34,175 bases of DNA from Actinomycetota bacterium (GTDB taxonomy: Bacteria > Actinomycetota > Aquicultoria > Aquicultorales > Aquicultoraceae). The translations under genes were made by a program, and so were the position numbers. The notes beneath the pieces are model-generated. The model was not told the origin of the DNA, ran no database searches, and saw nothing but the letters and a program-made list of their open reading frames with translations. The DNA is taken from the NCBI GenBank assembly GCA_014859275.1, contig JACUUO010000015.1:1-34175 (forward strand). Direction: 5' to 3'. This document shows positions 11,379 to 30,656 of this stretch, one piece after another. Positions within the stretch are counted from its first letter, which is position 1, and every line of letters starts with the position of its first letter.

Positions 11379-11384
11379 CAGGGG

Positions 11385-11457
11385 TGGAGAATAGGGGATT
11401 CGAACCCCTGACCTCCTGCGTGCAAGGCAGGCGCTCTCCCAGCTGAGCTAATTCCCC
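11385..11457 (-). tRNA. tRNA-Ala (anticodon TGC)
   Basis: A complete cloverleaf of 73 nt: acceptor GGGGAAT/ATTCTCC with the G3-U70 wobble that marks alanine tRNAs, D arm GCTC...GAGC, anticodon stem CCTGC/GCAGG with loop CTTGCAC, T arm AGGGG-TTCGAAT-CCCCT and discriminator A. The 3' CCA is not encoded (ACC then C). It is transcribed alone, followed by its own terminator, and not placed between 16S and 23S genes. Confidence 0.97.
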
Positions 11458-11489
11458 GTATTCAGTTCTTATTCCTGATGAGGGCGGGC

Positions 11490-11518
11490 AAAATATAAGG
11501 ACACCACTGGATGTCCTT
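11490..11518 (-). terminator. Terminator after the 64-residue ORF
   Basis: On the minus strand AAGGACATC pairs with GGTGTCCTT (9 pairs, one G-U, 4-nt loop) and is followed by ATATTTT. It starts 7 bp after the stop codon at 11526, so it ends the transcript coming from the phosphatase gene. Confidence 0.7.
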
Positions 11519-11525
11519 GAATATT

Positions 11526-11720
11526 CTATAGCATATTTGACCGAACATCAACTACCCGCGATTTTGAATCAACACCCAGCATCGTAATAGTCGAGAAAGA
11601 TTGCGATATTTTTACGAGGACAAGTGGACCGCTCTGCGTTTTTTTGCGACGGAGAAGGTAACGCCCCATCCAGCCTCCAACCGGTGGGTCCATAGGGCTT
11701 AGTTTTCTAACGTTTATCAT
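11526..11720 (-). CDS. Small hypothetical protein, 64 residues
   Basis: The ORF begins MINVRKLSPMDPPVGGWMGR and ends VVDVRSNML. It is basic in the middle (YLLRRKKTQ) and has no membrane segment. No family is recognised. It is placed 127 bp after the tyrosine phosphatase gene on the same strand and is followed within 10 bp by a terminator hairpin, which favours a real gene. Against it, the ribosome site (GGGGTGA) runs directly into the ATG without a spacer. It may be only the 3' end of the phosphatase mRNA. Confidence 0.38.
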   Translation of the reverse strand: MINVRKLSPMDPPVGGWMGRYLLRRKKTQSGPLVLVKISQSFSTITMLGVDSKSRVVDVRSNML

Positions 11721-11847
11721 TCACCCCTGGTACTTGCCGCCACTTACTTCGCTGCGGTAGTGCTGGATACCCAGGTCAAGCTTAAAGTGATGGCGGGATA
11801 TGTGCTCAAAAGTCCTGTTTATTGTATGCCTGTTGCCTGGAGATTGC

Positions 11848-12582
11848 TTAGATGCTAGAGCGTTTTTCGATAGTAAAAATATTGCCTGGGTTATCATATA
11901 CAAGGCGTTGCGCTGCCTGGCGTCCCACGATTTTAGCTGCCACCTTAAGAGCGCCTGTGAAATCGGGTGCGCGGTTATGCGGTGCATGGGCATCTGTTGC
12001 CATTATGTCGACCCAGCCCCGTTTTAGTAGCTTAATGGCTGTCTCTAAGCTGGCCCTGCCTAGCTCTCCTGTTACGCTGTTTGAGTTTACCTGCGCCATA
12101 CAACCCATATCGATAAACCTCCCCAGTCGCTCGGGATTTCGTTGAATATCATAGATGCGCTCCGGATGGGCAAGGATGGGTATCCATCCATCGACCCTTA
12201 GGCGAAATATGATTTCTTCAGCATAAAAAGGGGTGCCTTCAAATGGGAACTCAAGCAGTACATAGCTACTTTCAGCAAGAGGCAGAACCTCCCCCGCTTT
12301 TAATTTTTCCGGCAGGTCAAGGGAGATCCTTAATTCGTTGCCAGGGTAGATTTTGATAATAGGCATATCGGTCTTCTTAAGAGCGGAACGGAGAAGCTCT
12401 AGCATCGCTAATATCTCATTTCTTGAAGGATGATTACATTCGTTATGGTGCGGGGATGCGATGATTTCTGTAATGGCATTCTTGCGCGCGACACGCGCCA
12501 TCTCTACCGCTTCCTGGAGGGTGGCGGGCCCATCATCAAGGCCTGGCAATATATGATTGTGAATATCTATATATCCTTCCAT
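11848..12582 (-). CDS. CpsB/YwqE-type protein-tyrosine phosphatase (PHP fold)
   Basis: A 244-residue PHP-domain metal-dependent phosphatase. Motifs are DIHNHILPGLDDGP (metal-binding DxHxH and catalytic region), SPHHN, PGNELRI, ILAHPERI and ATDAHAP, which together are specific for the CpsB/CapC/YwqE group. These enzymes remove phosphate from bacterial tyrosine kinases and so tune polysaccharide export. ATG 12582 is chosen because AAGGAGG lies 7 nt upstream; a TTG at 12588 is too close. The cognate kinase is encoded 0.3 kb upstream on the same strand, but tRNA-Ile and its terminator lie between, so the two are separate transcripts. Confidence 0.93.
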   Translation of the reverse strand: MEGYIDIHNHILPGLDDGPATLQEAVEMARVARKNAITEIIASPHHNECNHPSRNEILAMLELLRSALKKTDMPIIKIYPGNELRISLDLPEKLKAGEVLPLAESSYVLLEFPFEGTPFYAEEIIFRLRVDGWIPILAHPERIYDIQRNPERLGRFIDMGCMAQVNSNSVTGELGRASLETAIKLLKRGWVDIMATDAHAPHNRAPDFTGALKVAAKIVGRQAAQRLVYDNPGNIFTIEKRSSI

Positions 12583-12666
12583 TGGCAAGCCTCCTTCACA
12601 GCAGGCAAATAGAATTTAATATCTAGTCTTATTCCATATCTGCCCAGCTACCCTATCTTGCTCTGC

Positions 12667-12702
12667 AATAAACAAGGGCCGTCTTAACGGCCCTTGTTTA
12701 TT
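12667..12702 (-). terminator. Terminator of tRNA-Ile
   Basis: A 16-bp uninterrupted stem (core ACAAGGGCCGT / ACGGCCCTTGT) with a 4-nt loop, flanked by A/T-rich ends, immediately after the tRNA on the minus strand. The U-rich tract (TTGTTTATT) overlaps the end of the stem. It may work in both directions. Confidence 0.78.
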
Positions 12703-12705
12703 ACG

Positions 12706-12779
<74 letters not shown>

Positions 12780-27491: not shown

Positions 27492-28832
27492 TTACGTCTT
27501 TTGTTTAAGGCGGTTTGTTAATTCTTGAATCTGATTGTATACCTCTCTTTGAGTACTGATCATCTTGCTTATTTTAGTATTCGCATACATCACCGTTGTG
27601 TGATCCCTCCCGCCAAACTCATCTCCTATTTTAGGAAGACTGAGATCAGTTAGTTCCCTTGCTAAATACATCGCAATCTGCCTGGGATATACGACTCCCT
27701 GAGATCTTTTATTTCCGATCAGTTGCGATTTAGATATATTAAAGTATCTACAGACCTCCGATTGTATGACCTGTATTGTAATTGGTCGGCTTGCCCGATT
27801 TGGAAATATGTCTTTTAATACTTCATCTGCTAAGGAAAGAGTTAGCGGTGCTTTTGTTAGTGATGAGAATGCAATAATTCTTATTAAAGCACCTTCGAGT
27901 TCTCGAATATTTGATTGAATTCTTGAGGCAACGAATTCTAATATGTCATTCTGTACGGATAGCTTTTCCATCTGCGCCTTCTTGTGGAGGATCGCTATCC
28001 TTGTTTCGAGATCTGGCGGCTGAATATCTGTTATTAAGCCCCACTCAAATCTTGATCGTAACCTATCTTCAAGCGTTGCGATGTCTTTTGGGGGGCGGTC
28101 GCTTGAAAGAACAATTTGTTTGTTCGCTTCATGTAGAGTATTAAATGTGTGAAAAAATTCTTCCTGTGTAGCCTCCTTGTTCTCAAGGAATTGTATGTCA
28201 TCGACTAGAAGGATATCATTATCGCGATATCTCTTTTGGAAGCCACCTATCTTTCCCTTATCCCTAATAGAGTTGATAAAATCGCTTGTAAACTTTTCGC
28301 AGGAGACATACTTAATTTTAAGGGGTGGGTGATGCGTCACTGCATAATGTGCAATGGCCTGTAGAAGGTGAGTTTTACCAAGGCCTACACCCCCATATAT
28401 AAAAAGTGGATTATATGCCTTTGAGGGCGTCTCAGCGACGGCAATGGCCGCGGCATGAGCAAACCTATTACTTCCACCTATTACAAATGAATCAAATGTA
28501 TACTTAGAATTTAGTGTAGATTGAGGACCCTTTAATTCCTCTCTTTTACTCCTGCTATCTTGAGCGACTGAGAGCTGCTCGGAATCGTCGACCACCACTT
28601 TAATATGAAGTTCCTCACCAAGAACCTGAAAAAGAGCATCCATAATTAGGCTGCTGTATCTGGATTCAAGCCACTCCTTCGCAAAAGCATTAGGCGCAGA
28701 TATAACAATCGAGTCGCCATTAATTTGCGTCGGGCTCGTGTTTTCAAACCATGTTTTGAAAGTTGGTGTGTTTAGTTGCTTTTTTATTATACTAAGGACT
28801 TGTCCCCAAATAATATCTAATTGGTTTTGCAA
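27492..28832 (-). CDS. dnaA: Chromosomal replication initiator DnaA
   Basis: A 446-residue AAA+ initiator. Domain I (1-85) binds helicase or regulators; a short linker follows; domain III has Walker [11 protein letters not shown], Walker [10 protein letters not shown] and the arginine-finger region [11 protein letters not shown]; domain IV has the DNA-binding signature [11 protein letters not shown]. The start is TTG 28832 ([12 protein letters not shown]) with GAGG 8 nt upstream. It begins 10 bp after an ATPase/winged-helix gene, so it is not the first gene of its transcript, which is unusual. It binds the boxes in the spacer upstream of that gene and opens the origin. Confidence 0.98.
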
Positions 28833-28842
28833 GAAAAATACC

Positions 28843-29676
28843 TCACTTAAGAATTTCGTCCAGGTATTCTATACCTAAAGACGTAAGCACCCTTTTTCCT
28901 TGTTCATCGGAGGAGATTAGAGATTTCTCCTCTAAGTATGTCAAATCTCGGTATGCGGTGCTAAGGCTAACGCCTAGTTCACCTGCTATCTTAGAAGGAC
29001 CAACTGAGCCAAGTTCCATGGCGAGAAGAAGAACCTTTTTTTGTCTCTTATTAAGGTCAAGGTTGACCGGGGAAAATTCGGTGCTACTGTTACCTTTCTT
29101 ATTATTGTCGCAGGGTACACGGAGAGTGATAACTGTTCCTCTGTCGAGATTATCCTCAACGGTTAATGCACCGCCTAAAAAAGAGAGCGCCTCCCTCGCA
29201 ATTGGAAGACCGGAACCAACACCCTTTATAAAGATTTTCATATCGTCCGTAGCCGTAGAAAAGCCAGGCTCAAAAGCCTTCTCCTTATTTTTTATACCTG
29301 GTCCCTGGTCAGATATACGAACAGTGTTGCCATTATCCAATATACTGATTACAACCTCTTTAAAATATGAGTGAATGAGGTTTTCAATTATCTCTTTTAT
29401 GACCGTGTATGGCATGTTGCCGCCAACTTCTTTTGACGATTGATACGTTTTTGTAGCAAGGAGATTAATAAATTCTTCGTAGTCCTTTGCACTTAACTCA
29501 ACAACACGCGGAGCAGCCATTAAAGAATCGTAGATAGCAAGCCTTGCAGCAATATCACTGGATGCAGGTATTGTCCTTAGAAAAAAATCGTATGCCCCAT
29601 TATTTTTAGTGTAATCGCAGGAGTCAGGGTGGGCTGCCCCTAAATTTTCAACGAAACGGCGGAAATAGTTTTCCAT
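28843..29676 (-). CDS. HATPase-winged helix protein co-transcribed with dnaA
   Basis: A 277-residue soluble protein. Residues 1-85 are of no known family. Residues about 90-190 are a GHKL/histidine-kinase-type ATPase: N-box EIIENLIHS (95-103), G1 box DQGPGI (123-128), F-box-like AFEPGFS and G2 box [13 protein letters not shown] (152-164). Residues 208-277 form a winged helix ([20 protein letters not shown]). No His phosphoacceptor domain, receiver or membrane segment is present. The stop is 10 bp before dnaA, which has no promoter of its own in that gap. ATG 29676 is chosen with GAGG 6 nt upstream; ATG 29679 and TTG 29688 are possible. It could be an ATP-responsive DNA-binding regulator of dnaA or of the origin; this is inference from domains and position. 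Confidence 0.82.
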
Positions 29677-30460
29677 CATCACCCTCAATTGCTTTCAGGG
29701 CTTAAATTATCCCCCGAGTTATTAACAACAATCCATTCTAATATTACTTACAAAGGCCCATGTTTGCAGTGATTTTTGAGTAACCCAATAAGGGTTATTA
29801 AAAAATGAAAAACAGAAACGGCCTTTCTGACAGCAGAAATCCAGCGAAAATGCGACCAGTATCCACAATTCTTTCCACACCTGTGGAAAGAAGTCGAAAG
29901 CGAAAAACAAAATTCTCTCGAAGGGCAAGTAGTTAAAGAGAAAGCCGGATATGAACTTTTCAAAAAGCAATGCCCAATAAGAAAAACCGGGCGCCTGTGG
30001 AAAACAATTTTATAGAGTGATCTAGAAACACTTCCTTGTAAAATACACAGAAAGGCGGCTGTTAAATAATCAATTGTGACGGAATTTTAAATACCGTCTA
30101 TTACCAGGCGTTTCAAAACACATAAAAGCTTGCTAAATTATAACAAAGGTATATCCAACGAGCAAACAAGGAATAAAAAAAATAGAAGGGCCGAGATAAT
30201 AAAGAGTTATTAACATTATCCACAGGATAGGAGTAAGGCCCTTAACGGGGTGAGCACGAATTGGTGGGCGCTCCCGAAAGCAGCTTATTCTTAAATTTGC
30301 GCAACAATATGTCGCTTTGCTATTATACATACTTCGACCGCTCTAAAGGTGGTAAACAGGGAAGAGTTTTAAACACACACGACTATCATCCAAGGTGGTT
30401 GGGCGAGATTGGGAATTCGCGACGCGTGGATGAAGGTTTATAGGGAACACCGCCGTTTCT
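29677..30460. other. Probable chromosomal replication origin (oriC)
   Basis: This spacer of about 0.8 kb lies between the leftward dnaA unit and the rightward rpmH unit, and holds no convincing gene. DnaA-box-like sites: GTATCCACA (29859-29867), CTTTCCACA (29871-29879) and its inverted mate (29882-29890), TTTTCCACA on the minus strand (29996-30004), AAATACACA (30041-30049, weak) and a perfect TTATCCACA (30216-30224). AT-rich stretches between 30005 and 30215 are candidate unwinding sites. Gene strands change from minus to plus here, as expected for replication diverging from this point. 30225-30460 shows no feature I can name. Confidence 0.82.
29869..29892. repeat. Inverted DnaA-box pair
   Basis: TTCTTTCCACA, two bases (CC), then its exact reverse complement TGTGGAAAGAA. 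Two DnaA monomers could bind head-to-head here, next to a third box at 29859-29867 in direct orientation. Each box has one mismatch to TTWTNCACA. Confidence 0.75.
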
Positions 30461-30489
30461 TGACATGTGCAGGTAGACAGCAATATAAT
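30460..30489 (+). promoter_or_regulatory. Strong promoter of rpmH-rnpA operon
   Basis: A perfect TTGACA (30460-30465) and perfect TATAAT (30484-30489), 18 bp apart. RNA would start near 30496, about 26 nt before the rpmH start. Confidence 0.85.
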
Positions 30490-30521
30490 ATAGCCTGTTC
30501 TTTCTATAAAAAGGAGAAAAA

Positions 30522-30656
30522 TTGAAGAGAACCTATCAGCCGAATAGGAGAAAAAGAAAAAAGAACCATGGCTTCAGAGTAAGGATGAGAACAAAGGCGG
30601 GCAGGAGAATTATCGCAAACCGTCGAAGAAAAAACCGGGGCAAGTTGTCGGCCTAA
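30522..30656 (+). CDS. rpmH: Ribosomal protein bL34
   Basis: 44 residues, beginning [18 protein letters not shown] and ending NRGKLSA, with the family's [15 protein letters not shown] core. Very basic, part of the large ribosomal subunit. The start is TTG 30522 with AAGGAG upstream. It is first in the operon rpmH-rnpA-yidD-yidC-jag, from a strong promoter, in the usual place right of the origin. Confidence 0.97.

What the first reader, a model, noticed from the sequence alone, without database searches (positions are those of the whole stretch)
28843..29676. GHKL ATPase-winged helix protein in the dnaA operon
Sequence shows N, G1 and G2 boxes of a histidine-kinase/anti-sigma type ATPase and a C-terminal winged helix, without His phosphoacceptor or receiver domain, 10 bp upstream of dnaA. 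Established: GHKL domains bind ATP, winged helices bind DNA. Inference: a one-component regulator that uses ATP state to control dnaA transcription or the origin. I know of no named regulator with this architecture at this locus. The origin spacer lies directly upstream, so it could bind there.
Basis: partly seen in the sequence, partly recalled or inferred. Interest (0 to 1): 0.75.

Follow-up and report, generated by a model that had tools for sequence, protein, structure and literature searches.

The report
ATPase–DNA-binding protein leading dnaA operon
The gene just before the bacterial replication-start gene dnaA encodes an unnamed, anciently conserved protein that joins an ATP-binding module to a DNA-binding module, and it is probably an energy-sensing regulator of dnaA or of the replication origin in a large part of the phylum Actinomycetota.

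Summary
Window 28843-29676(-) encodes a 277-aa protein: a GHKL ATPase domain (Pfam HATPase_c, E 2.5e-14) joined by a disordered linker to a C-terminal winged helix, with no HisKA or receiver domain. Its stop codon lies 10 bp before dnaA, and the origin (DnaA boxes, GC-skew minimum) lies directly upstream. The gene occurs in 153 of 396 sampled Actinomycetota genomes and lies immediately 5' of dnaA in 100 of 100 testable genomes. N, G1 and G2 residues are invariant in 38 of 38 orthologues. The winged helix persists even in the most diverged members. The GHKL and DnaA trees agree, with no strongly supported conflict. No Pfam, NCBIfam or PADLOC family covers the whole protein, and I found no paper that describes it. 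Most likely it is a nucleotide-responsive, DNA-binding autoregulator of the dnaA operon, perhaps also acting at the origin. ATP binding, DNA binding and the target are all inferred. No operator specific to it was found: the only conserved palindrome is paired DnaA boxes, which also occur where the gene is absent. At least one genus has lost it cleanly, so it is not universally required.

The parts
28843..29676 (-). GHKL ATPase-winged helix protein, 277 aa, first gene of the dnaA operon
29114..29553 (-). GHKL (HATPase_c) domain, residues about 42-188; N box E95-N99, G1 D123-G127, G2 G152-G156
   Evidence: Pfam E 2.5e-14; invariant residues in 38/38; AF2 model
28848..29049 (-). Winged helix-turn-helix, residues about 210-276; recognition helix at 238-250
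27492..28832 (-). dnaA, TTG start, 10 bp after the GHKL-wHTH stop
   Evidence: Pfam Bac_DnaA E 2.8e-74
29677..30521 (.). Intergenic origin region between this gene and rpmH
   Evidence: DnaA boxes and conserved blocks; GC-skew minimum
29859..29890 (.). Three DnaA boxes, GTATCCACA / TTTCCACA-N2-TGTGGAAAG, the most conserved element of the spacer; also present in genomes lacking this gene
29707..29728 (.). Conserved block TTATCCCCCGAG-TTATTAACAA (DnaA-box-like) just 5' of the gene
   Evidence: TTATCAACA retained where the gene is lost
30207..30224 (.). Conserved block TTATTAACATTATCCACA, distal DnaA boxes

Best explanation
It is an autogenous, nucleotide-responsive transcription regulator of its own operon (this gene, dnaA and perhaps dnaN). 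The GHKL domain binds ATP or ADP as an energy readout. The nucleotide state changes the dimer or its domain arrangement, and the C-terminal winged helix then binds DNA in the promoter/origin spacer, setting DnaA supply and possibly origin firing. Shown here: architecture, invariant ATP-binding residues, retained wHTH, strict linkage to dnaA, vertical co-inheritance, position beside the origin. Inferred: ATP/ADP binding, dimerisation, DNA binding, the target and the direction of the effect.
For: HATPase_c plus wHTH domains. All N/G1/G2 residues invariant across 38 orthologues. Position directly 5' of dnaA in 37/37 testable relatives and 63/63 testable genomes of the wider phylum, usually with gaps of tens of bp. 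GHKL and DnaA trees share 15 of 16 well supported GHKL splits with no strong conflict. The wHTH is preserved in a member only about 40% identical. The origin adjoins the gene. No sigma, anti-anti-sigma or receiver gene was recognised among the neighbours I read. There is a precedent for a GHKL domain that binds ADP/ATP as an energy signal without hydrolysis: NifL (PMC9866876).
Against: No operator was found: the only dyad shared by many spacers is paired DnaA boxes, also present where the gene is missing. GHKL-DnaA rate covariation is no stronger than with control genes. The gene is cleanly lost in one genus (L047/L048), and the recognition helix has diverged in some lineages. No biochemical data exist.
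Confidence: 0.47

Rival explanations
1. It is a GHKL protein kinase of the SpoIIAB/RsbW or histidine-kinase type. It phosphorylates DnaA or another orisome protein in trans, and the winged helix tethers it to the origin.
For: N box E-x-x-x-N with HK/CheA-like EPGFSTA and GVGSGL motifs. Weak matches to spIIAB (28 of 38 members, best E 3.3e-7) and to HK catalytic domains.
Against: spIIAB score far below its cut-off (25.2 versus 135 bits). No phosphoacceptor domain, STAS or receiver partner recognised in the locus.
Confidence: 0.2
2. It is a non-transcriptional origin factor. It binds origin DNA and the DnaA protein (as YabA, DiaA or SirA bind DnaA) and uses ATP state to modulate orisome assembly.
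For: Position beside the origin. No YabA above cut-off in the genome. A short conserved N-terminal amphipathic peptide (MENYFxRFVxNL / FYPFVE) could be a docking motif.
Against: No special covariation with DnaA. The origin core is unchanged where the gene is lost.
Confidence: 0.18
3. Its targets are elsewhere (stress or metabolic genes), and the linkage to dnaA only provides replication- or growth-coupled expression.
For: No operator recognised in the spacer. The gene can be lost.
Against: 100/100 linkage over a phylum-deep divergence is more than expected for a regulator of unrelated genes.
Confidence: 0.15

Closest known systems
DIP2311 of Corynebacterium diphtheriae (PDB 3LMM); I place it from memory in the AlbA_2-HATPase_c_4-winged-helix proteins, COG2865
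   Same: GHKL-fold domain followed by a winged helix; best Foldseek match of the window model over both domains (E 1.7e-7, 258 columns)
   Different: No AlbA_2 and no HATPase_c_4 match in the window protein or among the families shared by most of 38 members; canonical HK-type HATPase_c motifs; fixed position at dnaA
Sensor histidine kinases / CheA catalytic domain (HATPase_c)
   Same: N, G1, F-like and G2 motifs; best sequence matches in PDB
   Different: No HisKA/DHp or P1 phosphoacceptor, no receiver, soluble, fused to a wHTH
Anti-sigma kinases SpoIIAB/RsbW
   Same: Small soluble GHKL protein with a strand and helix before the N box (strand-helix order compared from memory)
   Different: spIIAB score far below cut-off; extra wHTH; no sigma or STAS partner recognised in the locus
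Csa3/CasR CARF regulators
   Same: Closest named winged helix (TIGR01884 E 7.6e-11 over residues 185-263; PADLOC CasR E 1.4e-9)
   Different: No CARF domain, a GHKL domain stands in its place; no CRISPR context seen
NifL (GHKL domain as ADP/ATP sensor controlling a transcription factor)
   Same: Proposed mode of action: nucleotide binding rather than phosphotransfer
   Different: NifL has PAS and H domains and acts on NifA, not on DNA (PMC9866876)

Membership tests
Two-component sensor histidine kinase | HATPase_c catalytic domain with N, G1, G2 boxes | tested here: met
   Pfam PF02518 in 38/38 members; invariant residues
Two-component sensor histidine kinase | HisKA/DHp phosphoacceptor histidine | tested here: not met
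   No HisKA match; AF2 shows a beta hairpin and one helix before the N box
Two-component sensor histidine kinase | Cognate receiver domain in the protein or locus | tested here: not met
   No receiver match in the protein; none recognised among window ORFs by reading
Anti-sigma factor kinase (SpoIIAB/RsbW) | Match to the family model above cut-off | tested here: not met
   TIGR01925 25.2 bits versus cut-off 135; PF13581 in 2/38 only
Anti-sigma factor kinase (SpoIIAB/RsbW) | Partner sigma or STAS gene nearby | tested here: not met
   None recognised among window ORFs by reading
AlbA_2-HATPase_c_4-wHTH proteins (DIP2311) | Winged helix C-terminal to a GHKL domain | tested here: met
   AF2 models; Foldseek
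AlbA_2-HATPase_c_4-wHTH proteins (DIP2311) | AlbA_2 and HATPase_c_4 domains | tested here: not met
   No PF04326 or PF13749 match in the window protein at E up to 1, nor in the 25 most shared families of 38 members
Csa3/CARF regulators | N-terminal CARF domain | tested here: not met
   CARF-family models match only the C-terminal part, apart from one fragmentary Csa3 match starting at residue 144
Known DnaA regulator YabA | YabA profile match | tested here: not met
   This protein matches no YabA profile; the genome has no YabA above cut-off
Nucleotide-gated DNA-binding regulator (what it may work like) | ATP/ADP binding and nucleotide-dependent DNA binding | not testable with these tools
   Needs purified protein

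The most novel reading that the evidence does not exclude
A phylum-deep, previously undescribed class of replication regulator in Actinomycetota: a GHKL energy sensor fused to a winged helix that binds the dnaA promoter/origin and couples ATP/ADP state to replication initiation, in place of regulators such as YabA. It was lost in the lineages that hold the non-carrier genomes sampled here.
Probability: 0.33. Interest if true: 0.85.

Novelty: new variant of a known kind. Interest (0 to 1): 0.64.

Why it matters
How DnaA is controlled outside E. coli, B. subtilis and Caulobacter is largely open. PMC5720831 (abstract) notes that many bacteria, mycobacteria among them, have no identified DnaA regulators, and there the gene Rv0004 proved to be an essential new member of the replication machinery. 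The protein found here is a conserved, strictly dnaA-linked candidate with an obvious input module (nucleotide) and output module (DNA binding). It appears to be carried by cultured lineages too (several carrier genomes are complete chromosomes), so it can be tested directly.

Tried and rejected
Operator search by alignment and dyad enumeration in the rpmH spacer: only DnaA boxes emerged, and the block nearest the start codon (TTATCC..TTAT[TC]AACA) survives in part (TTATCAACA) in genomes that lost the gene, so I do not call it this protein's operator. Rate covariation GHKL-DnaA: not special (partial r 0.12-0.14; DnaN 0.58-0.65; DnaA distances to the diverged lineages are probably saturated). 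An in-frame TAG flagged in two genomes was not seen in the L105 ORF, so it is probably the true stop. Defence system: only the wHTH matches CasR/Csa3 models. Promoter scan: no excess over shuffles and no convincing minus-strand promoter for this gene. Literature searches found no description of this gene, but most subscription papers are not in the library. Other phyla could not be sampled: the one genome-contig scan, made with a single sequence, returned only close relatives.

Full report
Observation. The ORF at 28843-29676(-) is real and encodes 277 aa. Its stop codon ends 10 bp before the TTG start of dnaA, whose GTGAGG Shine-Dalgarno-like sequence overlaps the end of this gene. HATPase_c matches residues 90-189 (E 2.5e-14), and many wHTH families match 206-275 weakly. 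AlphaFold2 on 38 orthologues gives mean pLDDT 83: a GHKL fold from about residue 42 (beta hairpin, helix 66-83, N-box helix 90-103, strands and lid) and a wHTH (helices 210-222, 227-234, 238-250, wing 254-264, helix 266-276). The linker 194-201 and residues 14-38 are disordered. Foldseek's best PDB match over both domains is 3LMM (DIP2311, E 1.7e-7); most of the other listed matches are histidine-kinase catalytic domains.

Is it more than chance? In 38 orthologues down to 34% identity, E95 and N99 (N box), D123, G125 and G127 (G1), G152, G154 and G156 (G2) are invariant, as are R243 and L245 in the wHTH recognition helix. Close pairs show dN/dS 0.05-0.23 for the whole gene, and low values for the C-terminal 70 codons too. 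So both domains are under purifying selection. The wHTH is retained in a strongly diverged member (L103, helices and wing mostly at pLDDT 87-95), although its recognition helix differs.

Distribution. The own genome has one copy. Its relative L004 is Candidatus Aquicultor secundus (Actinomycetota, class Candidatus Aquicultoria). Among 60 relatives, 37 carry clear orthologues (E below 1e-37); the window's own copy makes 38. In the 37 of these 38 genomes that can be tested, the gene lies directly 5' of dnaA, with rpmH/rnpA/yidD/yidC diverging on the other side wherever the contig shows them. Across 396 genomes of the phylum, 153 carry it at E at or below 1e-20. Of 64 carriers checked, 56 have dnaA next downstream on the same contig, 7 have it across the join of a circular contig (contig lengths confirm this), and 1 is split over two contigs. 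That makes 100 of 100 testable genomes. From genome size, contiguity and diverged DnaA I think families f24, f31 and f47 are Coriobacteriia, but the tools withhold names, so this is inference.

History. Trees of the GHKL protein and of DnaA share 19 of 37 splits (permuted mean 0.2, maximum 3). Of 16 GHKL splits with SH-aLRT at or above 90, 15 occur in the DnaA tree, and no strong conflict exists. Presence/absence needs 5 changes on the DnaA tree (shuffled mean 16.8). The gene is therefore ancient and vertically inherited, with losses. L047/L048 (genus g25) show a clean loss: no GHKL-wHTH orthologue anywhere in those (incomplete) genomes, but the same DnaA-box core upstream of dnaA.

Origin and operator. 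The spacer 29677-30521 holds DnaA boxes at conserved positions, and cumulative GC skew is lowest near 28-30 kb. The most conserved element is a DnaA-box cluster at 29859-29890 with an inverted pair TTTCCACA-N2-TGTGGAAA. It is the only dyad shared by many spacers (21 of 29; shuffles never exceed 3), and the same arrangement is visible in genomes that lack the gene. I therefore found no operator specific to this protein. The block nearest its start codon looks like paired weak DnaA boxes and may serve DnaA autoregulation, as known in other bacteria (PMC8203912).

Mechanism. The anatomy is an input module (nucleotide) and an output module (DNA binding) with no phosphoacceptor, at the head of the dnaA operon. 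The simplest reading is an autogenous nucleotide-responsive regulator of dnaA expression. NifL shows that a GHKL domain can act as an ADP/ATP sensor without hydrolysis (PMC9866876). Kinase and orisome-factor readings remain open. Rate covariation does not single out DnaA as a partner.

Comparison with known systems. No Pfam, NCBIfam or PADLOC model covers the whole protein. It fails the defining tests of histidine kinases (no DHp), SpoIIAB (25 bits versus a cut-off of 135), DIP2311-type proteins (no AlbA_2 or HATPase_c_4) and Csa3 (no CARF). It is best filed as an unnamed GHKL-wHTH family tied to dnaA, a new variant of a known kind of regulator whose function is not yet tested.

Noticed in passing
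window 11383-12779: tRNA-Ala(TGC) and tRNA-Ile(GAT) lie 1.2 kb apart with a CpsB/PHP-like phosphatase-type gene between them and no rRNA; these two are usually found together in rRNA spacers.
   Followed up: no
window 30460-30522: A perfect consensus promoter (TTGACA-18-TATAAT, 12/12) lies upstream of rpmH, which starts with TTG.
   Followed up: no
L062 (G017), upstream of dnaA: dnaA appears broken near codon 178 and a transposase-like ORF lies upstream; no GHKL-wHTH gene was found in this genome. Possibly an insertion or assembly problem.
   Followed up: no
L104, L037 (carrier families f47, f24): The linker between GHKL and wHTH has grown to 150-200 residues rich in P, Q, G and Y, and DnaA of these lineages is strongly diverged.
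   Followed up: partly
window residues 1-13 and orthologues (A1, A2): A short conserved N-terminal amphipathic peptide (MENYFxRFVxNL, FYPFVE) precedes a disordered stretch; possible docking motif.
   Followed up: partly
L035, L036: In one carrier family the origin cluster is three perfect DnaA boxes at 12-bp spacing (TTATCCACA, TTATCCACA, TGTGGATAA).
   Followed up: no
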